64,000 nucleotides of DNA from Diacronema lutheri (taxonomy: Eukaryota > Haptophyta > Pavlovophyceae > Pavlovales > Pavlovaceae): NCBI GenBank assembly GCA_019448385.1, contig JAGTXO010000030.1, positions 186,001 to 250,000 on the forward strand, written 5' to 3'. A program made the translations under genes and the position numbers. Under the pieces are notes generated by a model, which was not told where the DNA came from, did not search any database, and worked only from the letters and a program-made list of their open reading frames with translations. Below, in pieces: positions 36,012-49,834 of the stretch; the stretch's first letter is position 1; each line of letters opens with the position of its first letter.

Positions 36012-36099
36012 ACCCAGCCACTGATTTTGAAATCCACGGGAGGAATTTAACCAACCTTAATTTTGCGTGTTCGCACACGATCGACCAAAGCCGCCGACA
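36012..36099 (+). promoter_or_regulatory. AT-rich promoter/leader of second light-harvesting gene
   Basis: The stretch contains CTGATTTTGAAATCC, then CGGGAGGA (36037-36044) followed by AATTTAACCAACCTTAATTTT. The first light-harvesting gene has the same CGGGAGGA word (reverse strand, about 30558-30565) next to an AT-rich AATAATTACC patch, so this may be a shared element. Confidence 0.4.
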
Positions 36100-36720
36100 A
36101 TGTTCGCCCAGCTCGCCGTCGCCGCCCTCGCCTTCTCGGCCCCGGCGCTCCGCACGCGCTCGCCGGCGCGCTCGCAGGCGGTGATGACCTTCGAGGAGGA
36201 GATCGGCGTCCTCGCGCCGCTCGGCTTCTACGACCCGCTCGGCCTCCTCGACGACGCCGACGAGGAGCGCTTTGAGCGCCTCCGCTACGTCGAGCTCAAG
36301 CACGGCCGCATCTGCATGCTCGCGGTGCTCGGCCACATCGTGACGGCGGCGGGCATCCGCCTGCCCGGCGAGATCTCGTTCGGCCTCCCCTTCGCCGACG
36401 TGCCCGCCGGCCTCAAGGCGCTCGAGGTCGTGCCGGCCGCCGGCCTCGCTCAGATCGTCGCGTTCGTCGGCTTCCTCGAGCTCTTCGTGATGAAGGATGT
36501 GACGGGCGAGGGCGACTTCCCGGGCGACTTCCGCAACGGCTTCATTGACTTCGGCTGGGACAACTTCGACGACGAGACCAAGGAGCAGAAGCGCAACATC
36601 GAGCTCAACCAGGGCCGCGCCGCGCAGATGGGCATCCTCGCGCTCATGGTGCACGAGAAGCTCGACAACAACCCGTATATGATCAACTCGCTCCTCGGCT
36701 ACCCGGTGCCGTTCAACTAG
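36100..36720 (+). CDS. Chlorophyll a/c-type light-harvesting protein (FCP/LHC family)
   Basis: A single exon of 206 residues. The N-terminus MFAQLAVAALAFSAPALRTR is a signal-like segment with an AFSAP word, as expected for import into a complex red-lineage plastid; the mature part begins near VMTFEEEIGVLAPLGFYDPL. The first chlorophyll-binding helix reads YVELKHGRICMLAVLGHIV and the third reads IELNQGRAAQMGILALMVHE, both with the Glu-x-x-His/Gln-x-Arg type ligands. The middle helix lies around AGLAQIVAFVGFLELFVM. The chain ends NSLLGYPVPFN. Unlike the other antenna gene 5.5 kb away it has no intron, so they are not a recent tandem duplicate. Assignment to Lhcf or Lhcr type needs a tree. Confidence 0.93.
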   Translation: MFAQLAVAALAFSAPALRTRSPARSQAVMTFEEEIGVLAPLGFYDPLGLLDDADEERFERLRYVELKHGRICMLAVLGHIVTAAGIRLPGEISFGLPFADVPAGLKALEVVPAAGLAQIVAFVGFLELFVMKDVTGEGDFPGDFRNGFIDFGWDNFDDETKEQKRNIELNQGRAAQMGILALMVHEKLDNNPYMINSLLGYPVPFN

Positions 36721-36996
36721 AGCGCTCGCTCGCTCCGAACCCCGCCTTCGGTTCAGGATCGTGCGCGCGACGGCGCAGCGCCGGCGCGCACGCCCAACGC
36801 GCCAAGAGCGGCGGGCCGTGCGCGTTGCGCGTTTAGCGCGCGCGCGTCTCAGAACGAACGCATGACTGACATGGCCACGCCAGTGCGGGAGCACCTTGCC
36901 TCGCGTGCCTAGATCGCTCAAGTGAGCCGGTCGTCGGCCGTTGATGAGCTTGTTAGTCATGGCAACGTGCACGCCCGAGTCAACTGGCTCCTCGCC

Positions 36997-37824
36997 ATGT
37001 CGCTGACTCGAGCGCGCGTGCGCCTTTTCACGCGGCGACACGCGAGCGTGGCGGCAGTGCTGCGCGCGTCGGCCGACGGCGGCCTTGAGCTACTGCTCAT
37101 CCAGCGCATCGCGAGCGAGCGCGACCGGTGGAGCGCGCACGTCGCGCTGCCCGGCGGCGTCGTGCACGACGACGAGAGCGCGCTCGACGCGGCCATGCGA
37201 GAGTGCCGCGAGGAGGTCGGGCTCGACCTCGCCGAGCCTGGGCGGTACGAGCTCCTCGGCGAGCTGGACGAGCGCCTCGCCACGAGCGGCCTCGCCGTCT
37301 CCACCTTCGTCGTGCGCTGCACCGCGCCGGCCGCCGTCGCCGCGCCGCGCCTCGACCTGCAGCCGACAGAGGTTGCGTGCGCGTGGTGGGTGCCGCTCGA
37401 CGCGCTCCGCCCCGCGGCAGTCGTCGACTCGCGCGTGCCCGCGAGCGCCTACCTGCCGCGCGCGCTGCGCGCGCGCCCGTGGCTGTCGCGCGCGCTCGGC
37501 GTCGATTCGGTGCTCACGCGAAGCATACCGATCGCGTGGCCGCCAGCCGCAGGCGCACCCGTGCCGCCGCCGGCCGACGGCGGCCACCCGTTCCTCTGGG
37601 GCCTGACCTTTGGGATCGTGGGCGACCTGCGTCGCGCGCTCGGCATGCCCGGGCTCGTGCCGCCGCTCCACCCGCGCCCAAACGTGCGCTTCGCGCCGCT
37701 GCTCCACCCGGCCAACGCGCTGATCTGTCACCTCCGAATCGCGTTCGCGCTGCGCACGCTCGCGATGCGATCTCCAGCTCTGAGCGCGCTGCTGCAGCCC
37801 ACGCGCAGGTGGCGGCGCGCGTGA
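36997..37824 (+). CDS. Nudix hydrolase, CoA-diphosphatase-like (NUDT7/8 type)
   Basis: A single exon of 275 residues from ATG 36997; the frame is open upstream but without ATG. The complete Nudix box is visible at about residues 50-72: GGVVHDDESALDAAMRE followed by CREEVGL, fitting G-x5-E-x7-R-E-U-x-E-E-x-G-U. Before it, WSAHVALPGG resembles the LPGG entry of CoA-diphosphatase-type members (NUDT7/NUDT8, CoAse), which split CoA to phosphopantetheine and adenosine diphosphate. The CoAse-specific LLTxR element is only partly matched by LLLIQRIASERD. The C-terminal 100 residues are longer than usual, with a moderately hydrophobic stretch (FLWGLTFGIVGDLRRALG). Substrate not settled. Its stop lies 31 bp from that of the DUG gene (convergent). 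Confidence 0.82.
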   Translation: MSLTRARVRLFTRRHASVAAVLRASADGGLELLLIQRIASERDRWSAHVALPGGVVHDDESALDAAMRECREEVGLDLAEPGRYELLGELDERLATSGLAVSTFVVRCTAPAAVAAPRLDLQPTEVACAWWVPLDALRPAAVVDSRVPASAYLPRALRARPWLSRALGVDSVLTRSIPIAWPPAAGAPVPPPADGGHPFLWGLTFGIVGDLRRALGMPGLVPPLHPRPNVRFAPLLHPANALICHLRIAFALRTLAMRSPALSALLQPTRRWRRA

Positions 37825-37855
37825 GCCGCTTATCTCTGTACCGAGTGGCATATCA

Positions 37856-40800
37856 TCAGCAGATCCGCGCGCCAGCTGAGGCGCGCCCGGGCCGCCGCGC
37901 GCCGGCTGTGCTGCGCGGGTGGAGCTGCGCGAGCTCGTAGATGAAGGCCTTGAGCGTCTGCTTGCCTTTGTACAGCGCCTTGAGCGACATCCGCTCGTTG
38001 TCCAGGTGGGCGTTGTCCGACGCCTGCCCGAGCGAGAGGTGGACGGCGGGCGCACGCAAGATTCGCTCGAGGCACGACGTGACGGGAATCGTTCCGCCCT
38101 CGCGGATGAAGGAGGGCTTGAGCCCCCACACGCGCTCGAGCGCGCGTGCGGCCGCCTGGTACACCGGCGAGTGCGGGTCGCCGAGCCACCAGTCGCCGCC
38201 GCCAACCGCCGTGACTGAGAGCTCGTTGGGTGTGCCGAGCGCTCCAAACGCCGCACGCAGGTGCTCCGTCACGCGGCGTACCACCTCGTCCGAGCTCTGG
38301 TCGGGCACGAAGCGGATGGAGATGTGCGCCGAGGCGGCGGGCGGGATCACCGCGTAGTTGCTCGAGTTCGCGTTCGCAGACAGCTGGTTGATCGACAGGC
38401 AAGGCTGCCGCCATCGCGCCATGAGCAGCTCGCGCGATCCGACCGCGACGGCGTCCTCACGCGCGCCGCCGCCGCTCGCGCCGCCGGCGGCGCCGGCGGC
38501 GCCGCCGGCGGCGCCGGCGGTGCCCGCGTCGCCGCCGTCGCCACCACCGACAGCGCGCAGCCGCACCGCCGCTCCGATCCGCTGCGCGTACTTGCGCGCG
38601 TCAAAGTCGACGCTGTCGTAGAGCGCCGCCTCCGCGTCGACGAGCGGCCGCACCGCGTCCTCAAAGCCACGCACGAGCACGCGGCCGGTTGCCGTGTCGA
38701 CGAGCGTGGCGAGGAGCGCGGCAAGCTCGATCGTCGGCTCGTGCACCGCGCCGCCGTGCACGCCCGAGTGCAGAGAGCGGTGCGCGCCGCGCACGCGCAC
38801 GTCGAGGTGCGCCACTCCCCTCAGTCCGTACACGAGGCACGGCCGCTCGTCCGACAGCCAGTAGGTGTTGCTGATCAGCACGCACGCGACGCCCGCGTCG
38901 CCGCCGAGCCACGCGCGCTCGCCCGCCATCGCCGCGTCAAAGCCGACCGAGCCCACCTCCTCCTCGCCGTCGAAGACAAAGGCAAAATTGAAAGGTGGCG
39001 GCTCTCGCGCGCGCAGCAGCTCGCGCACCGTCGCGAGCATCGCGACGATTGGCCCCTTGTTATCGGTGACGCCGCGCCCGCGCGCGTAGCCGTCGGAGAC
39101 GGTGAGGCAGAACGGCGGGCTGAGCCAGCCCTCGCCGCCCGCGCCAACGACGTCGTAATGCCCGTAGAAGACGACCGTCGGTCTGCTCGCGTCGACGAGG
39201 ATCCGGCCGAGCACGATTGGGAAGCCGCGCCCGCCCGCGCCAACCTCGACGCCGCGCCGCGCGCTCGGCGCGGCGGCGGCGGCGCTCGCGCCGCTCGCGC
39301 CGCCCGTCGGCTGCCGCGGGCAGACAAGCTTGGTCTCGGCGCCCATGTCCTCGAGCTTGCGCCTCAGCCACGTGGCCGCGCCGACAACGTGCAGTGCCGC
39401 GGCCGGGTCGGCGCTCACGGACGCGAAGGCGACGATCTGGCGGAGCGACTCGAGCATGCTGCCCAGGCTGGACTGCGCCTGCGCGCGCGCGCTCGATGCC
39501 AACGCGCTCGACAGTGTCTGCGCCGACGCGCGCCGCGCGAGCGCCTGCCGCGCGCCGCCGTCCGCGCCGGGCGCGCCGCCGCCGCCCTCGCCCGCGCCAC
39601 CGAGCGCATCGCGGTCGAGACCGCTCTGCACGCTCAGGTCGATGAGTGAGCTGGCGGAGAGCGAGGCATCGATGCCGTCGGCCAGGCCGCCGCCGCCCGG
39701 CCTGCCGCCCGCGGCGAGCTGCTCGGCGTCGAGCAACGACACCTCGTGGGCGAGCACCGAGCCCGACGCGAGGGCGCAGAAGCAGAGGGGCGCACAGCGC
39801 GCGCCGGCAGGCGCGCGCGCGGGCGCGCCAGCCGACGCGCCGTCGTCGGCGGGCGCGCCGGCGCCGGCGCCGTCGCCGCCGATGCGCGCGGCGCCGTCGG
39901 CGGCGTCGCTCGCGCAGGCGGCCGGCAGCGCGCAGCAGAGCGCGTGAATGGCCGCGGGCCCCTGCGCGCGGCTCGCGTCGCGCGCGCCCGCGCGCGCGTC
40001 GGGCGTGCCGGCGCGCGCGCGCGCGTCGAGCACGTGCGTCTGCAGGCAGAGGAGCGAATCGGCATCCCACACCCGACAAATTCCGGCGCCGTCTCCCGAC
40101 AAAATGAGGCCGTTACACACGACGAGTGTGCTCACCGCGCCGCCATGGCCGGCGAGTGAGCGCAGCGGCAGCGGCGGGTGGCTCGCGCTCGCAGGGTCGC
40201 AGTCCCAGACGCGCACGCACGCATCGGCGCCGCCCGAGAGGAGCAGCGAGCGCGGCGCGTCGTACGCCACCGACAGCACCGAGCCGTTGTGCGCGGGCAG
40301 CGCGTGCTCGAGCAAGAAGCCGCACGTCGCCGCCGCGCCGTTGCGCGCGCCCGTGGCGCGGCCGGCGCGGCCGCTCGCGCCCACGTCGGCGGCGGCAGCC
40401 GCGCGCTCGTCGCACGGCGGCGTGACGATGCCCGCAGCGACGTCGACGCGCCCCCACAAGCAGACGGCGCCGTCGCCGCCTGCCGAGCAGAGCCAGCGCT
40501 CAGCGCACGAGCAGAGGGCGAGCACATACCCCGCGTGGCCGCGCAGCGTGCACGCGACGAGGGACTCCATCTTGTACGCCGTGCCGCCGGGCGGCAGCGC
40601 GGGCGCGGGCGGCGGGAGGGACGCGCGCTCGGCGAAGGCGTCGGCGAAGGCGTCGGCGAAGGCGTCGGCGTGCTCCTCGCGCTCGTCGCCGAGCGCGGCG
40701 GCGCCGTCCGCCGCGCTCGACGACGCGGACGTGCCGTCGCCGAGCGCGCGCGCGGCCTCCTCGACGCAGCTGGCGAGCGCGCGCCGCTGCGCCATGCACG

Positions 40801-41966
40801 CGCCATGCGCGCGAGGTGCGCCGCCGGTGCGCGCGCGCGTCAAAGGCTCGGGCGATGCGGAGGGTGTCGCGCGCAGCGCGGGCGATGCGGTGGGCGTGCG
40901 CAGCCCGTCGTCATCATCATCGTCGTCGTCTTCCTCCTCCTCCTCCTCCTCCTCCTCCTCTCCGGCCCCTGCCGGGTTGTCCGTTTGGGGGAAGAGGGGG
41001 TGGGCAACGCCAGCGGTGGGCAGACCGGGCAGCGCACGGCACACCCCGCGGACGGACGGCCGGTGCGCGCTCGCACGCGACGCCGCGCCGTCCGCGTCGA
41101 AGGAGGCAGACGGCGCGAGGCGCGGCACGGCGTCCTCAGGGCGTCGCGCGAGCCGCTCGGCCATTTGCGCAACGATGCGCGCGCGCGCGGCGGGCGCGCC
41201 GCCCTGCGCGCGCTCGAGCTCGTCGGCGCGCGCGTTCGCCAGCGCGCTCAGCCGCGCGGCGCCTGCGGCCGCGACCACATCGTCGAGCAGCAGGCATTTG
41301 ACCGTTGAGTCCTGGCAACCCGCGCACAGCATTGGTCGAGGCCGCACCGCGCGCGCGCCGCCGGCCGCGGCGGCGGCGGCGGCGCGCGCGCGCGACGCGC
41401 CGTGGAGCGTGCGGTGCGCGTCGCGCGCCGGCTGCTCGGCGCGGGCGCGCGCCGCGCGCGCGCACGGCGGGAGCGCGACGTGGACGATAGCGAGGGTGTG
41501 CACCATGCCGCACGTGGCGAGGACGAGGAGACAGACCGTCGCGTTCAGGTCCCACACGCGCACAGAGTTGTCGGCGGAGGCGGAGAGGGCGAGGTCGATG
41601 CCGCCCAGGCCGCGCCCGCACGCCGCCGCGCCGTTGCCGCCCTCGCCGCCGCCATCGCCCGGCCGAAATCCGACGAGCGCCGTAACGGCGCGAGAATGCC
41701 CGACGAGCCGCCCGACAAGCTCGTAAAAGTCGAGGCGCCAGACACGCACGATGGCGTCGGTCGAGCCAGCGAGGAGAAGTGCGCAACCACGCGCGGGCAC
41801 GTGCACCGCGAGCGCAAGCACCGCCGCGCGGCTTCTGTCGCTCAGCTCGCCGTGCAGTTGCAGCACGCGCGCGCCGCCCGCGCTCGCGACGCCCGGCGCG
41901 AGCGCGCCGCCGTCGCGCGGAGGCGACGAAGCGAGGCGACCACCGCCGTCGCCACCGCCACCGCCT

Positions 41967-41997
<31 letters not shown>

Positions 41998-43434
41998 TGC
42001 CTGCTTCGCCGAGGACGGCGCGCTGCTGCAGCGGCACGGCGCGTCGCTCGGCGTACCCCGCGAACGCGGCCGGGCCGGGCGGGCAGCCGCCGTCCGCGTT
42101 GCAGAAGAGGTGCAGCTGCGCGTGTCGCGGCGCGGCCGCGCCCTCGCCGCCGTCGGGCGCGCAGTCGAGCGCGAGCTCGCCGTGCGCGCGGAAGGACGGG
42201 ATGCGCTGCAGCGAGAGCGAGAGCGAGAGCGACATGGGCCGCACGCCCGCCTCCGCCTCCGGCCCCTCGCCCTCACCCGCGCCGGTGCTCGCGTGCGCGG
42301 CCGTGCGCGCCGTCGCCGTCGCCTCACCGCAGCGCGGCGCGCCGGGCTTGACAGCCATGGCGCAGCCGTCGAGCGCTTCGATGAGCACGCGCAACCCGGC
42401 CTGCTCGCTCCCGCCCACCGCCGCGCCCGCGCCGCCCGCGTCCGAGACGATGGTCACCATCGAGTTGCTCGGCACGGGCAGCCAGTCGTGGGCGGAGGCC
42501 GACAGCGGCTCGGACGTCACGATGACCGCACGCTGCTGGCGCGACGCGTGCCTCATCGTGTACTCCGAGTCGGTGCCGCCCTTGCTCGGCTGCGCTTCGA
42601 ACGCCGAGCCTGACGCGTAATAGAGCGTCGCCGGCTCAGCGCCCAGCGTGTCGACAAAGCGCGTCGCGAGGATCGCCTGCCCGTCGGAGAGCACAAAATT
42701 TAAAAGGGAGACGTCGTCGGCGGCGGGCGGCGGCTGGCCAGCGCGCGCGTCGCGCACGAGCTCGCAGAGCCTCGCAATCGTCGTCGCCATCGCGCGCTGC
42801 AGCTCGGCAGGCGGCAGCGCCGCGCGCAGGTCGGGCAGCTGCGCGAGGAAGAGCGCAAACGCCGCCTCTGAGTCGGACTTGCCCTGGATCATGGCGTACA
42901 GCTCGTCGCTCAGCGAGGCCTCAAGCTTGCGCCGCAGCCGCGCGAAGCACGCGATCGAGCCGTTGTGCATCCACATGTACCGCCCGTATACAAACGGATG
43001 GCAGTTCACCTCCGAGACGGGCATGCCCGGGTAGGCCGCGCGCACGTGCGCAAAGATGAGAGGCGAGCGCACCTTGCGCGCGAGCCGGCCGAGGTTGAGG
43101 TTGTTCCACGCGGGCTGGATCGACGTGAAGAGGCACGGCTCGTCGGCGGCGCCGGTGAATGCCTCGTCGTACCAGCCGACGCCAAACCCGTCGCCGTTCA
43201 CTGAGCCCTGCGTGCGCTCCTTGCCTGCGGAGCGCACGCGCGCGCGCGGACGCGCGCGTGCGAACGCAAAGGCGCGTGTGGGGCGGCACGTGCCCGCGCG
43301 AAGCGTCGCGCAGAGCGTGCGGACGCGCCGACGCGCGTACATTGGAGCGCCTGCGAGGTGATCGAGCGCGTCGGCTTGGTCACCAGCTCCTCCATCAGGA
43401 TTGGCGGCCCGCAGTACACCATCAGGCGGCACAT
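37856..43434 (-). CDS. Fused DUG3-DUG2 glutathione-degrading enzyme: class II glutamine amidotransferase + WD40 + M20 peptidase
   Basis: Exons 43434-43341 and 43224-37856 give about 1820 residues. The N-terminus MCRLMVYCGPPILMEEL supplies the class II amidotransferase Cys2; the intron (donor GTACGC) rejoins LQ-CKERTQGSVNGDGFGVGWYD, typical of yeast Dug3. FAHVRAAYPGMPVSEVNCHPF and WMHNGSIACF continue that domain to about residue 300. After a Gly-rich linker come WD40 units (GSTDAIVRVWRLD, SASADNSVRVWDL, LCSAGGDGAVCLWGR, LLSGGADACVRVWDCD, LILSGDGAGICRVWD), then an M20 metallopeptidase: YGHYDVVGAGGEGW, RGVTDNKGPIVAML, FVFDGEEEVGS and IREGGTIPVTS. WD40 plus M20 is the Dug2 layout. In yeast, separate Dug2 and Dug3 form the complex that cleaves glutathione's gamma-glutamyl bond; here both are in one chain. 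A repeated FADAF tract lies in a WD linker. Confidence 0.9.
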
Positions 43435-43527: not shown

Positions 43528-46500
43528 TCATCGAGCCCGCGGCGCGGAGGCGGGGCGCGCGGCGCGTAGGGCCGGCACGGCCGTCGGCCGCACGCCCACG
43601 ACGAGTGCCGGGCTCGCGCGCCGCGCGGCGCGCTCTTTTAAGGCTCGCCGCACGCGCGACGCTCCCTTGCCGGCGCGCGCGCCGACCGCGTCCTCGCGAA
43701 GCGCGTGCGCGACGATGGTGAAGGGCGACCCGTCGATGGGGTGCCCGAGCACAACGATCTGCACCCGGTACACACCGCTCACGCTCACCATCATCCGGAC
43801 GGCGTATCCGCCCGGGGCCAACGCGCTCGCGCCGAGCGGCTCGACCTCCGCCGCAAGCGCGCCCGGCCCCGCGAGGCTCGTCAGCCGCACGTCGTCGCCG
43901 CGCGCGTCGCGCGGCAGCGCGTGCGTGAGCCGCAGCTCAGCCCACCTGCCCACCTCGACGTCCACTTCGCCGTCGCGCCATGCGAAGAAGCCTGCGCCGA
44001 ACACGACGGCGGGTGAGAGCACAAGCTCGCCGAGCACGCTCCCCGACTCGACCGGCGCGCCGCGCTCGCACATCACGACGCGATAGAAGCCGGCGCGGCC
44101 CGCGTCGTACTCGACGATGAGCACACCGCGCTCCGCTGCGACGGGCCGCAGTCGCAGCCGCAGCCGCGCGCGCTCGGCGCCGACCGCCTGGCGCGAAGGC
44201 GTGCGCAAGTGGTGCGAGGTGTTTCCACACGGCGCGTGAGCTCGCGCCGGTTCAACGCGCGCGCGGCACGAGTGGAGGCGCGCGCGCGCACGTGCACATC
44301 GACGGTCCGCTCGCTCTCCGACGGCCAGCCGTCGGGCGCGAGGTTGTGCGCCGCATCGCGCAGCTCGATTTCAAAGCTGCCCGCGCTCGCGGCCGAGCCA
44401 ACGGCCGCGCGGCGCGCCACCGCGGCGGCCGCGCGCGCGCCGGGCGCGGCGCACGAGGGCGAGCTCCCGGTGCTACCATCGAGCGCAACGGGCGGCAAGC
44501 TCTGCGCGAGCACGCGCGCCGTGCGCAGGACGCACGACGGCGGGTGCGTGCGGCCCGGAACGCAACGCAGCTTGAACGGCGACCCATCGATCTGCGCCAG
44601 CGATGGCGGCGTACCTCGCCGAGCGCCGTTCGCCTCGTCCGCGTGCACGCCGTGGGCGAAGCGCACGTGCACCTCGTACTCTCCCACCCGATCGAGCACG
44701 TAGCTGCACGTGTAGCCGCCGTCGCCGCGGTCGACCACGCGCACGGGCCACGGCACAGCGTCGGCGTTGGCGTCGGCGTTGGCGACGGCGTCGGTGGGCT
44801 GCCCTGCCAAGGGCGTGCGCGGCGCGGCGGCCGCAACGCCGCCGCCGCCGCCGTCCCCACCGCCACGCCGTGCGGGCAGCAGCATCACATCGACCAAGTC
44901 GCCGCCGCGCGCCACGCTGTTGCCAAACGCGTCGCGCGCGCGCACCTCGAAGGCGCACAGCTCGGCCGCACGCGCTGTGCGCAGCCCGGAGCCGAGCGCG
45001 ATGCATCGCTCGGGCGCCGGGCGCGAGGGAAGCACGTCGAGGCGAAACGGTCCGGCGAGCAGCACCGCGCGCGCGCTCGGCGCGCCAAGCTGCACGCCGA
45101 TCGCGCCGCCGCGCGCACGCTCTGATGTGCCATGCGGCGCGTGGAGCGCGAGGGAGCGCGCGCGCTCGGCTGGCGCGTGCAGTCGGTCGTCCGCCGCAGA
45201 CACAAGGCCTGCGTACGGCTCGCCGACGATGTCGAGCTCAAGCGGGCCCGCGCGGTAGCACGTCACCGAGCCCGCCCAGCCGCCCGAGCGCGCGCGCTCC
45301 AGCCGCGCGACCAGCGCGGCGCCGCTCAGCGCGGCGGCGCGCGCCCCAGCCGCGTCGAGTGCGTACGCGCGCACGTGCAGCCGGCAGCGGCCGAGCGCGC
45401 CTACGGCTGGCGACGCATCGGCAGGTGCCCCCTCCGCGCTGCCGGCCGCAGCGAGCATCACCGCGTCAAGCCGGTTGCCGAAGGAGTCGGTCGCGTCGAG
45501 CGCGAGCGCGGCAGGCTCGCCCGCGACGAGCGCGGCCGCACCGCCGTGCGCGCGCAACCAGTCGGCGGTGAAGAGGAGACGATCGGGCGCGGCGCGCGCA
45601 GGCAGCACGACCAGCTCGACCGCGTGCGCGCCCACCGGCTCGTCGTTGAGCAGCGCGCGCAGCGAAAATGTGCCCGCGCGCCAAAAGGTTGCGCGCAGCT
45701 CGTAACTGCCGTCGCCCAGGTCCGCCGGCGGCGCCGCGTCAAAGTCACGCGCGGCGGCCCCGAGCGGCGCGGCGCGCGCTACGCCGGGTGAGAGGATGCG
45801 CCCGCCCGCCGCGCCGCTGTACGGCGCGTCGCCACTCGGGAGCAGCGCGCTGTGCGCGCCGCGCGCAGCGTCTCCGCGGCGCATGGCGCGCAGCTCGACG
45901 CGGTCTCCGCCCTCGGAGCGCGCGTTGCCGCAGCCGTCGCGCGCCCAGACATGCATCGTGATTGCCTCGCCGGCGACCACCGTCTCGGGCGCGACGCAGC
46001 CGGAGCGCGCAGCGCACGTGCCGCCCGGCATGACGCGCAGCGTTGCGGACGGCCCCAACCCGCCGTCGACGTACGTGCTCAGCAGGTACTCGCCCGTGCC
46101 GCTCAGCGCGAGCATGAGCGCGTAGCTGCCGTCGTGCAGGTCCTCCACCGGCACGTCCACCTCAGCGTCCATATTCGCGCCCGAGTCCGAAATCTCGTCC
46201 GCCGCGCCCGAGTCCGAAAAGTCCTCCGCCTCGGCCGTGGCGCTGGCCGCGGCCGCGCCGCCGCCGACGGCGGCCATGATGTGTTCGCGCGACGCATCGG
46301 TCGGATCGGTCGGATCGGTCGGATCGGTCGGATCGGTCGTGCGCGCGCCGCCAAAGCCGCCGCATTGCCTGCGCTCGTCCTGCGCTGCGTGCGCCGCCTC
46401 CTCCGCGTCCGAGTCGAAGGCAACCAGCGGCTGCCGCGAACGAACGCGCCTGGTCGCACCCACCCGCTCGACGCGCGCCCCCTCGGCTGCCGCCTCGTCC

Positions 46501-48437
46501 GCTCGCGCACCGCACGTCGCCAGCGCGCAACGCGTGTCCACGGCGCGGGCTGGCAGCGCGCTCTTGCCCACTTGGAGCTCGAGCGCGTCGCCAAATTCCT
46601 CCAGCGCACGCGCGAGGCTCGGCTCGCAGCCTTGGCCGCCATGCTGGGTCGAGCCTGCAGCGCGCGCGCGCGACAGCACCGCGCGGAACTGCGCGAGCAG
46701 CGGCGACATCGGCTCGTCCGAAGTGCGCTCCTCGTCAAAGTCGCCCGCACGTTGGGCTTGGGGCGCGGGCGAGGCGCGGCTGGGCGGCAGCGCGCGCGCG
46801 CGCGCCGCCGTGTGCGCACGCCGCGCGCGCCGCGCGTTCGCGCGCGCCGCGGCGCCAACCGCGTCGTCGCCCGCGCCGTCCGCGCGCACGCCGCCAGCCC
46901 CTCGCCATGGCGGCAGCGCGCGCACGCGGCGCAGCTTCGCGCCAACCGCGTCGCCTCCGCGCGGCCGTCCATTCCCAGCGCTGTCCCGCACGGCGAGCAC
47001 GAGCATGAGGTGCGTGCCCGCAGGCACGGGCGCGGCGGGCACGCCGCGCAGCGCGCACGCGCGCGCGTCGGCGCTCGCCGCGCGCACGCCGAGCGAGTAG
47101 GGCGAGCGTCCGACCGCCGCGCCGTCGAGCAGCACGTGCAGCATGCTGGAGCCCGCAGCGGGCAGCACGAGGGACGCGAGCATCGAGCCGTCGGCGCGCG
47201 CACTCAGGCGCGCGCGCACGGGCGGTGGCGCGCGCTCGAGCGCAGGAGCGCGTGGCACGTCGGTGCGCACGGCGATCACCTCGAATCCGCACGACGCGCT
47301 CGGCGCGCCGTGGCCCGCGGCACGCGGCGCGGCCGTCGGCGCGCACGCGTTGCCGAGCGCGTCGCGCGCGCGCAGCACGAGCTGCAACGGAGCCTCGTTT
47401 GACGCGGCGTGCTCGATGTGATTGGGCAGCGGCTCGAGCGCCTCCTCCTCGCCACTCGCGCGCAGCCAATGCACCTCCGACGCGGCCGCGCTCGGCGCGC
47501 CCGGCGCGACGACAAACCGGGCGGGCGCGAGCGGCACGCCATTCACGCTCGCACGCAGCTCGTGCTCGCCCGCGAGGCGAGGGACGAAGGCGAGGTCGGT
47601 GCGGCCGCCGTCGCGAGGGCGCGCCTCGCACGCGAGCACGCGCCCGTCTGGCGCGCCCACCTCGGCGCGCACCATGTCGGGCGCCGATCGGCGCGGCGTC
47701 CCCGACGCGGCGCGCGTGTGGACGCACGCTGCCGCCTCTGCGCCTGCGGCCGCACCGGCGAGTGCGTCGACGACGAGGGTTGAGCGCGCGGCAAATGTCG
47801 GATCGGCGTGCACGACGAGTGGGAACGGCGCGCCATGCACCGCGTGGCCGCCCACGGAGACGGAGAGCGCGTAGGAGCCCGCAGCCTTTGGCGTGAAGCT
47901 CGCGCGAAAGTGCCCGTCTGCGAGCCTGCGCACGAGGACGGGCAGCGGGTGCCGCCCCTTCGCCTTGGCGGTGCACTTTGGTGGCGGGAGCGACAGCGGC
48001 CACTTGTACACGTGCACGTCGAACCGGCTCTCCCGTCCGGCGCGCGCTGAGCGCGCGCCCGCGCCCGACACGGTGCACAGCCGCGCGCACAACTCCTGCG
48101 CCGGCGCTGCGACGACGGCTTGCAGAGCGCGCGCCCACGCGCCGCCGTGCTGCGCGCCCAACGTATCGCCGATCCGCCCCACAAGGTCGCTCAGCTGCGG
48201 GTAGCTCAGCCGCTCGCTCCCGCTCGCATCCGCGCCGCGCGCGAGAGCGAGCGCGTCCGGAGGCGCGAGCGTGGCGTCACCGTCGCTGACGAGCCGCGCG
48301 ACGAGCGGCGCGTCGAGGACGGGCACGGAGGAGGCGCCGTCGTCCAGCAGCTCAAAGATGCGGAAGCACGCCGCCTCATGCAGCTGCGCCGCTGGCAGTG
48401 CACGCGCGCCGCTCGGCGCGCGTGCGCATGTTCCCAT
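43528..48437 (-). CDS. Large filamin-type Ig-repeat protein (2 exons)
   Basis: Exons 48437-44292 and 44187-43528 give about 1601 residues. Many filamin/ABP280 repeats of about 95 residues are visible, with the G-D/A-G-x-Y and P-x-x-V-x-x-S-x-G-x-x-I/V-x-G-S-P-F patterns: ADGHFRASFTPKAAGSYALS, GDGSYELRATFWRAGTFSLR, GDGGYTCSYVLDRVGEYEVH with IDGSPFKLRCVPG, and in exon 2 ASALAPGGYAVRMMVSVSGV with HPIDGSPFTIVAHAL. No calponin-homology actin-binding domain is seen; the first about 150 residues are helical and unrecognised. The chain starts MGTC, so N-acylation is possible. A DPT tract from GGATCGGTC repeats (about 46299-46340) and an acidic DSGAADEISDSGA stretch lie in the middle. The intron (donor GTGCGC) keeps phase. 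Likely a cytoskeletal or membrane-linked scaffold. Confidence 0.75.
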
Positions 48438-48493
48438 GGCCGGACGTTCAAACCTTTCCGCCGACCCACGGCGCGGCGCCAAAAGCGGTCGAG
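48438..48493. promoter_or_regulatory. Very short divergent promoter, filamin-repeat / ABHD hydrolase
   Basis: Only 56 bp lie between start codons. It contains GGCGCCAAAA (48475-48484), which reads TTTTGGCGCC on the other strand, the E2F-type consensus. Confidence 0.55.
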
Positions 48494-49834
48494 ATGAGGT
48501 GGTTCGTCTTGCTCTATGGGTTGCGGCCGTTGAGGGAGTTGTTCGCCCCAGCAGGCGCGCGCGACGGCAAGCGCGCGCCGTACGCCGCGCTGCCGCTTGC
48601 CGATGGCGCGCCGGGCGTGTATTGCGACCGTTCGGCGCCGCTCGCCAGGCGCGTGCTGGCCGGCTGCCCGACGCTCTCGCCCGAGGGCTTTTACCGCCCG
48701 CCGGCGCTGTGGGGCTCAAACGGGCACGCGCAGACGATCCTCGCCTCGCTCTTCCGGCGCACGCGCTGTGTCGAATACGCGCGCGAGCTGCTGCCCACGC
48801 CCGACGGCGGCACGCTCGCGCTCGACGTGCTGATGGCGGTACGCGACGAGCGCTCTGCAAAGGGCACGGGCTCAACGGTGACGCCGATCGGCGAGACGAT
48901 GGCAGCGTCGGTGCGCAACACCAAGCCCGTACTGCTCCTCACCTCGGGCCTGGGCGGCGGCTCGCAGGACGCCTATGTCCGCTCGATGGCCGCCCACGCG
49001 TCCGAGTGCGGCTGGCACGTGCTCGTCCTCAACATGCGCGGCTGCGGCGGGTCGGCGGTCACGTCGCCGCGCTTCTTCTCGGCGCGGCACGGCTCGACGG
49101 ACGACGTGCGCCTCGCCGTGCGCCACATCCGCGCCTCCGACCACCTCGGCCGCGTCGCGCCGTGCGTCGCCGCGGTCGCGTGGTCGAACGGCGCGACGAT
49201 CGTGAACAACGTGCTTGCCGAGCAGGCCACGTCCCACCCGCCGAACGCCGACGCGGACGGAGCGCACCACGGGCTTGACGCGGCAGCCACGCTCGCGAGT
49301 CCGCTCAACATGCCCGCCGCCGACGCCAACCTCGCGCGCCCCTTCCATCGGCACGTCTACGACCGCTCGATAGCACGCGGCCTCGTGGCCAACTTTCAGA
49401 CGTCGGGCGCGGCGCTCGTCTTCAACGCGGCGCAGGACAACGGCGGCTGCGTACGCGCGTGGACAGGCACGAAGATGCGTGTCGACATCGCCGAGCTCCT
49501 CGCGAGCACGACCATCCGCCGCATCGACGAGCTCCTCACCTCGCGCTGCTTCGGGTTCAACAGCGTTGACGAGTACTACGCGGACGCGTCGTCCGACCAG
49601 AGGCTCGCAGACGTGCGGGTGCCGCTGCTCGTGATGAACGCGTTTGATGACCCGCTCGCGCCGGGCAACTCACTACCGTACGAGCGCGTGCGCCGCTGCG
49701 AGCACGTGATGCTTGCCCTCACCGCACACGGTGGGCACCTCGGCTGGTGCGACGAGGGCGCCCCATTTGGCGCGCCACGCTGGGTCGAGCAGACGGTCTG
49801 CGACTTTCTGCGCGTTGCAACGAGCCCCGCCTGA
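48494..49834 (+). CDS. Alpha/beta hydrolase of the ABHD1/ABHD3 (EMB8) type
   Basis: A single exon of 446 residues. The family signature is present: LWGSNGHAQTILASLFRR near residue 80, then ARELLPTPDGGTLALDVL, LTSGLGGGSQDAYVRSM and VLNMRGCGGSAVTSPRFFSA. The nucleophile fits Ser in AVAWSNGATIVNNVL (G-x-S-x-G replaced by W-S-N-G as in part of the family), with Asp in NAFDDPLAPGNSLP and His in TAHGGHLGWCDEG completing the triad. Members are membrane-bound lipases or phospholipases that act on medium-chain or oxidised phospholipids. An N-terminal hydrophobic segment (WFVLLYGLRPLRELF) could anchor it. The in-frame ATG at 48398 would overlap the filamin gene, and the clear first motif favours 48494. 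Confidence 0.87.
   Translation: MRWFVLLYGLRPLRELFAPAGARDGKRAPYAALPLADGAPGVYCDRSAPLARRVLAGCPTLSPEGFYRPPALWGSNGHAQTILASLFRRTRCVEYARELLPTPDGGTLALDVLMAVRDERSAKGTGSTVTPIGETMAASVRNTKPVLLLTSGLGGGSQDAYVRSMAAHASECGWHVLVLNMRGCGGSAVTSPRFFSARHGSTDDVRLAVRHIRASDHLGRVAPCVAAVAWSNGATIVNNVLAEQATSHPPNADADGAHHGLDAAATLASPLNMPAADANLARPFHRHVYDRSIARGLVANFQTSGAALVFNAAQDNGGCVRAWTGTKMRVDIAELLASTTIRRIDELLTSRCFGFNSVDEYYADASSDQRLADVRVPLLVMNAFDDPLAPGNSLPYERVRRCEHVMLALTAHGGHLGWCDEGAPFGAPRWVEQTVCDFLRVATSPA

What the first reader, a model, noticed from the sequence alone, without database searches (positions are those of the whole stretch)
37856..43434. DUG3 and DUG2 fused into a single glutathione-degrading protein
An N-terminal class II amidotransferase (MCR... 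Cys2) is followed in one open frame by WD40 repeats and an M20 peptidase. In yeast these are the separate proteins Dug3 and Dug2, which form an obligate complex. The fusion would fix 1:1 stoichiometry and independently confirms the partnership.
Basis: partly seen in the sequence, partly recalled or inferred. Interest (0 to 1): 0.8.

Follow-up and report, generated by a model that had tools for sequence, protein, structure and literature searches.

The report
Fused Dug3–Dug2 glutathione-degrading enzyme gene
An alga carries as one long protein the two halves of a glutathione-splitting enzyme that yeast makes as separate proteins; the same fused form occurs in many other eukaryotes, although the pathway has been described as special to fungi.

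Summary
The fusion is real by sequence. One minus-strand gene (43434-37856) encodes 1820 residues: Dug3-type class II amidotransferase, WD40 propeller, Dug2-type M20 domain. One detail of the finding is wrong: MCR/Cys2 is not in the long open frame but in a 94-nt first exon before a 116-nt GT-AG intron. The fusion is not peculiar to this alga (most likely the haptophyte Diacronema lutheri). 79 of 308 database proteins listed by three capped searches carry the same parts in the same order: green, charophyte and red algae, apicomplexans, chromerids, a thraustochytrid, an amoebozoan, a choanoflagellate, probably Euglena; some are transcript ORFs. An Asp-to-Asn change in the M20 metal site is shared by 77 of 80 fused and 108 of 108 unfused, mostly fungal, relatives, so the M20 part is Dug2-like and probably not a working dipeptidase. 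Best reading: a single-chain, probably dimeric enzyme that cleaves the gamma-glutamyl bond of glutathione. Whether fungi split an ancestral fused gene is not settled; the trees are weak or disagree. Papers seen call the pathway fungus-specific; none found describes the fusion. No transcript or activity of this gene was tested.

The parts
43341..43434 (-). exon 1: ATG, Met-Cys-Arg, catalytic Cys2 (codon 43429-43431), first 31 residues and one base
43225..43340 (-). predicted GT-AG intron, 116 nt
   Evidence: splice restores homology with fused relatives. No transcript was seen
37856..43224 (-). exon 2, remainder of the coding sequence including the stop codon
42428..43434 (-). Dug3-type class II glutamine amidotransferase domain (residues 1-297; spans the intron)
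41879..42427 (-). linker between amidotransferase and WD40 (residues 298-480), no in-frame stop; in-frame ATG at 42235
41951..41995 (-). poly-glycine tract in the linker (15 Gly); the frame is not supported by codon usage in this block
39689..41878 (-). WD40 region with long low-complexity insertions (residues 481-1210, boundaries set by me)
   Evidence: a relative (P0029) is predicted to have one propeller, residues 345-642
37907..39505 (-). Dug2-type M20 peptidase domain with dimerisation domain (residues 1272-1804)
38867..38869 (-). codon of Asn1484, which replaces the metal-site Asp of active M20 dipeptidases

Best explanation
It is a single gene for a fused Dug3-Dug2 protein. Likely working: Met1 is removed, Cys2 becomes the N-terminal nucleophile and attacks the gamma-glutamyl amide of glutathione (or another gamma-glutamyl peptide), releases Cys-Gly, and the glutamyl-enzyme is hydrolysed to glutamate or passed to an amino-acid or peptide acceptor. 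The WD40 propeller holds the amidotransferase against the M20 part, and the M20 part makes the homodimer and no longer works as a dipeptidase. The product would be a homodimer of one chain instead of yeast's (Dug2-Dug3)2. Cys-Gly is then cut by another peptidase. Shown here: gene structure by sequence, domain order, conserved catalytic motifs, the Dug2-type Asp-to-Asn change, occurrence of the same chain elsewhere. Inferred: splicing, all chemistry, dimerisation, substrate.
Against: No transcript, protein or activity of this gene was seen. Exon 1 rests on homology and GT-AG ends. Codon usage does not support the frame in the poly-Gly block. The genome also has a gamma-glutamyl transpeptidase and a ChaC, so the enzyme is not needed a priori for glutathione breakdown, and no clear Dug1 was found. 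In this protein four of the five metal-site positions checked, and the catalytic Glu, keep the usual residue, so loss of peptidase activity is inferred.
Confidence: 0.82

Rival explanations
1. The chain does both steps: the amidotransferase frees Cys-Gly and the M20 part, still active despite the Asn, cuts Cys-Gly, so one protein replaces Dug1, Dug2 and Dug3.
For: The other metal-site residues and the catalytic Glu are present in this protein. No clear Dug1/carnosinase-type M20 gene was found in its genome.
Against: The Asn is shared with the unfused, mostly fungal, relatives (108 of 108); the catalytic Glu is replaced or gapped in 11 of 80 fused rows. Yeast Dug2p is reported to have no peptidase activity (Kaur et al. 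2012, recalled; paper not held). M17 leucine-aminopeptidase genes at two places could supply the Cys-Gly step (that role of M17 enzymes is recalled). The genome search goes exon by exon and can miss a split Dug1 gene.
Confidence: 0.08
2. It is an EgtC-like enzyme that trims gamma-glutamyl intermediates in ergothioneine synthesis.
For: EgtC is the only amidotransferase model among the 25 of 40 NCBIfam matches shown (142.5 bits); the genome has an EgtD-type methyltransferase.
Against: It stays far below the EgtC cut-off (218.65 bits); EgtC structures match at 38.8 bits or less while a fungal (P0189, 255 bits) and a named bacterial (P0209, 234 bits) Dug3-like protein match far better. EgtC is not known fused to WD40-M20 (recalled).
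Confidence: 0.05
3. Two neighbouring genes, Dug3 and Dug2, read as one because stop codons are rare at about 75% GC; Dug2 would start at the ATG at 42235.
For: The linker is 183 residues, low in complexity and not supported by codon usage in one block; an in-frame ATG exists at 42235.
Against: The Dug3 frame has no stop before 37858, so a separate Dug3 would need an unseen splice. 79 listed proteins from many lineages show the same joined order, some apparently from transcripts.
Confidence: 0.04

Closest known systems
Dug2p-Dug3p complex of Saccharomyces cerevisiae and other fungi
   Same: Dug3-type class II amidotransferase, WD40 then M20, Dug2-type Asn in the M20 metal site
   Different: one polypeptide instead of two; long low-complexity inserts; not a fungus
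fused GATase-WD40-M20 proteins in sequence databases (e.g. P0002 Chlorella ohadii, P0054 probably Euglena, P0072 Toxoplasma)
   Same: same three parts, same order
   Different: 32-55% identity in the Dug3 part (fused rows), 31-40% in the M20 part (fused rows); spacing from Dug3 to M20 380-2109 residues, median 572, here 975; several are labelled 'Cys-Gly metallodipeptidase DUG1' or 'hypothetical' by their sources
Euglena gracilis 'GSH degradosome' contig GDJR01091960.1 (PMC6351624, passages)
   Same: the paper assigns the degradosome proteins, in the plural, to one transcript contig, raised in hypoxia, which fits a fused chain such as P0054
   Different: the main text does not use the word 'fused' (0 hits); the contig's sequence was not compared here
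Dug1 / carnosinases (CN1, CN2; PDB 4g1p, 2zof, 4ruh, 3dlj)
   Different: no WD40 or amidotransferase part; keep the metal-site Asp
bacterial Dug3-like single-domain amidotransferases
   Same: 49% identity for the one bacterial row with a source name, P0209; same catalytic motifs
   Different: stand alone; in 0 of 80 loci held did a Dug2-like M20 or WD40 frame of 80 aa or more lie in the flanks, up to 6 kb where the contig allows

Membership tests
Dug3 amidotransferase | N-terminal Met-Cys-Arg with Cys2 as nucleophile | tested here: met
   (after splicing); that Cys2 acts is inferred
Dug3 amidotransferase | groups with eukaryotic Dug3 and apart from bacterial relatives | tested here: met
   the 63 eukaryotic rows are one side of a branch, 100/99
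Dug3 amidotransferase | hydrolyses the gamma-glutamyl bond of GSH together with Dug2 | not testable with these tools
   needs an assay
Dug2 | WD40 repeats N-terminal to an M20 domain | tested here: met
Dug2 | Asn in place of the metal-site Asp (feature found here, not a curated definition) | tested here: met
Dug2 | no peptidase activity; dimerises through M20 | not testable with these tools
   only the dimerisation-domain match
DUG pathway (Dug1-Dug2-Dug3) | Dug1 Cys-Gly dipeptidase in the same genome | tested here: inconclusive
   none clear by family or protein search; exon-by-exon search can miss it, and the other strong M20 locus (L008) was judged by eye only
Dug1 / carnosinase | intact metal-site Asp and no WD40 part | tested here: not met
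EgtC | reaches the TIGR03442 equivalog cut-off | tested here: not met
   142.5 against 218.65 bits, (on the open frame, without exon 1)

The most novel reading that the evidence does not exclude
The fused chain is the original eukaryotic form of the DUG enzyme, present in the last common ancestor or close to it, and the two-protein complex known from yeast is a fungal (fungi plus aphelids) product of gene fission. The pathway is then pan-eukaryotic, with an M20 domain turned long ago from peptidase into scaffold, and with the amidotransferase held at the N-terminus because its nucleophile must be the terminal cysteine.
Probability: 0.4. Interest if true: 0.65.

Novelty: new variant of a known kind. 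Interest (0 to 1): 0.5.

Why it matters
Papers I could see call the DUG route of glutathione breakdown fungus-specific (PMC9012958 abstract; PMC6508711 passage; PMC7214794 passage). The window gene and 79 listed database relatives show what looks like the same enzyme as one chain in algae, apicomplexans, chromerids, an amoebozoan and others, several under misleading or empty names. That widens the pathway to many eukaryotic lineages, gives a covalently paired enzyme that may be easier to study structurally than the two-protein complex (the PDB sequence searches show no chain named Dug2 or Dug3 among the rows shown: 60 of 168, 5 of 5, 4 of 4), and raises a testable question about whether fungi split an ancestral gene.

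Tried and rejected
Direction of change (fusion or fission). Each tree used part of what was held: 46 of 80 fused rows (45), 17 of 121 standalone Dug3 proteins and 19 of 80 bacterial loci, 26 of 108 unfused M20 proteins. Dug3-domain tree, 82 rows: fused needs 2 changes, 1 not excluded (42% of 200 bootstrap trees), deep forks unresolved. M20 tree, 76 rows: fungi lie among fused rows, the forks above them at 82-90 bootstrap, not starred; one unfused metagenome row (P0079, possibly an incomplete gene) also lies among fused rows. The same without the 13 unnamed metagenome rows, 63 rows: one change, and holding the fused rows together is not rejected (p-AU 0.53). Dug3+M20 joined, 54 rows with composite fungal and bacterial rows and one long-branched row (u60) left out: fused is one clade beside fungi, 89/66. 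Holding fungi with the amoebozoan pair: p-AU 0.054; with Monosiga added: rejected, p-AU 0.0025, so the choanoflagellate gene may be transferred or misplaced. The fission reading therefore rests on which lineages have the fused form, not on the trees, and I give it 0.4. Also against a simple story, the amoebozoan Balamuthia (P0236) and an unnamed transcript (P0250) have a separate Dug3.

Bacterial operon origin: not seen in the 80 loci held; more loci matched than were kept.

Chance open frame and two-gene readings: see rivals. Poly(A) signal AATAAA: none in the window, so no help. The structure list is filled by WD40 and M20 matches; the amidotransferase part was not tested by fold.

Is this genome's own protein annotated? 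No 100% match came up, but the window's own records may be left out, so nothing follows.

Literature: eight searches on DUG-related terms and one for the genome. No listed title or abstract start describes the fusion; passages were read in PMC7617739, PMC6351624, PMC9012958, PMC7214794, PMC6508711, PMC3731230 and PMC10853773, others of the lists were not opened. Most subscription papers are not held, so prior description is possible. Kaur et al. 2012 is recalled, not read.
Full report
Where the window lies. The assembly has 43,492,796 bases in 103 contigs, and the window's 2-kb blocks run from 67 to 79% GC. The published Diacronema lutheri assembly has 43,502,671 bp, 103 contigs and 73.25% GC (PMC8379373, passages). 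I take it to be that haptophyte; the small difference in length is unexplained.

The gene. On the minus strand a stop-free frame of 1874 codons runs from 43480 to 37856. A 116-nt stretch with GT...AG ends (43340-43225) joins the two and restores the expected sequence, giving 1820 residues. At the join this protein reads QALQCKERTQGSVNGDGFGVGW; the relative P0054 reads QSYHCQERLPGLGSSFNADGFGVGW. Pfam finds GATase_4, WD40, Peptidase_M20 and M20_dimer, each above its cut-off, the first three in that order (run on the open frame, without exon 1).

Is it one gene? Stops are rare at this GC, so an open linker proves little. Three things speak for one gene. The Dug3 frame has no stop before the end of M20. 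Codon usage favours the frame in 14 of the 16 blocks outside the training parts, with the poly-Gly block the clear exception. Above all, other organisms have the same chain.

Relatives. A search with the Dug3 domain among long proteins only gave 74 hits; 73 also carry M20. The other two searches listed 120 of 263 and 120 of 618 hits. Over the three lists, 80 of 309 proteins (308 database proteins plus this one) hold both, Dug3 first in all 80. My own WD40 comparison flagged only 29 of the 80; the precomputed Pfam lists show WD40 or related propeller models in the fused rows. Source names place them in chlorophytes, charophytes (Chara, Closterium), a red alga (Cyanidium), a thraustochytrid (Hondaea), chromerids, apicomplexans including a gregarine, an amoebozoan (Planoprotostelium) and a choanoflagellate (Monosiga); apart from the three organisms looked up the higher groups are recalled. 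P0054 bears an identifier that I recall as Euglena gracilis, and P0058 groups with it. P0058 and P0060 are transcript ORFs labelled complete by their source, and P0003 appears to be (label cut off). No animal or land plant name is in the 74 rows, but the search is limited to shared words and does not prove absence. Separate Dug3 proteins were seen in fungi, an entry that I recall as the aphelid Paraphelidium (P0264), Balamuthia, one unnamed transcript, and bacteria. 49 of the 80 fused entries begin with MCR as given; others start later or carry extra sequence, which may be gene-model error, and Monosiga P0062 lacks the start of the domain.

Which M20 is it? The M20 part resembles carnosinases and Dug1 in sequence and, for the relative P0029, in fold, but where these have IS-Asp-N, this protein has IS-Asn-T. 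The Asn is in 77 of 80 fused and 108 of 108 unfused relatives, while 4 of 4 bacterial dipeptidases keep Asp. The other three fused rows have Ser, Asp (P0012) and a gap. The 108 are mostly fungal by their source names, many of them close kin, some unnamed metagenome proteins; for one (P0163) only M20 is listed. That position is a metal ligand in active enzymes (recalled). So the M20 part is of the Dug2 kind and probably not a peptidase.

Amidotransferase part. Cys2 is present in all 53 fused rows that have a residue there; 27 rows are gapped. NGDG, AHVRA and MHNG motifs are kept in this protein and nearly all rows. Since the nucleophile must be the N-terminal Cys (recalled for Ntn hydrolases), the domain can only be joined ahead of Dug2, which is the order seen.

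Context in the genome. One gamma-glutamyl transpeptidase locus, a ChaC in two pieces, M17 aminopeptidases at two places, an EgtD-type methyltransferase, and no clear Dug1. Of the two other M20 loci, L010 is weak (25 bits) and L008 reads by eye like an aminoacylase-type hydrolase, not tested further. The fused enzyme is thus one of several possible routes of glutathione breakdown.

History. The trees do not settle the direction (see Tried and rejected). If genes passed down vertically, a fused form in Amoebozoa as well as in algae and Euglena-like protists implies a fused ancestor and later splitting in fungi and in Balamuthia. If the amoebozoan and choanoflagellate genes were transferred, a single later fusion is enough. 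I give the first 0.4.

Literature. Yeast Dug2p-Dug3p is described as a complex of two different proteins acting on GSH and gamma-Glu-Met (PMC7617739, passages) and able to transfer gamma-glutamyl groups (PMC6508711, passages). Papers call the pathway fungus-specific (PMC9012958 abstract; PMC6508711; PMC7214794). The Euglena paper reports one transcript contig for the degradosome proteins, raised in hypoxia (PMC6351624, passages), which fits a fused gene without saying so in the passages seen.

Verdict. The fusion is real by sequence and its reading as Dug3-Dug2 is supported. It is one member of a widespread fused form of a known enzyme that I found described nowhere in the papers searched.

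Noticed in passing
36913-37856: A NUDIX-domain frame on the plus strand converges on the fused gene; the two stop codons are about 30 bases apart, so the 3' ends must overlap or be very short.
   Followed up: partly
44073-48938, minus strand: A 1621-aa stop-to-stop frame with filamin-type repeats lies just upstream of the fused gene on the same strand.
   Followed up: no
36061-36720, plus strand: Chlorophyll a/b-binding (light-harvesting) protein frame.
   Followed up: no
own genome: No clear Dug1/carnosinase-type M20 gene was found, although the Dug3-Dug2 fusion is present; the Cys-Gly step may be done by M17 aminopeptidases.
   Followed up: partly
P0075 (metagenome protein): A WD40-M20 protein without the amidotransferase part that carries a SAM domain between WD40 and M20; lineage unknown.
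   Followed up: no
   Followed up: partly
P0004, P0010, P0056: Fused proteins are named 'Cys-Gly metallodipeptidase DUG1' by their sources, although they carry the Dug2-type part and a Dug3 domain.
   Followed up: partly
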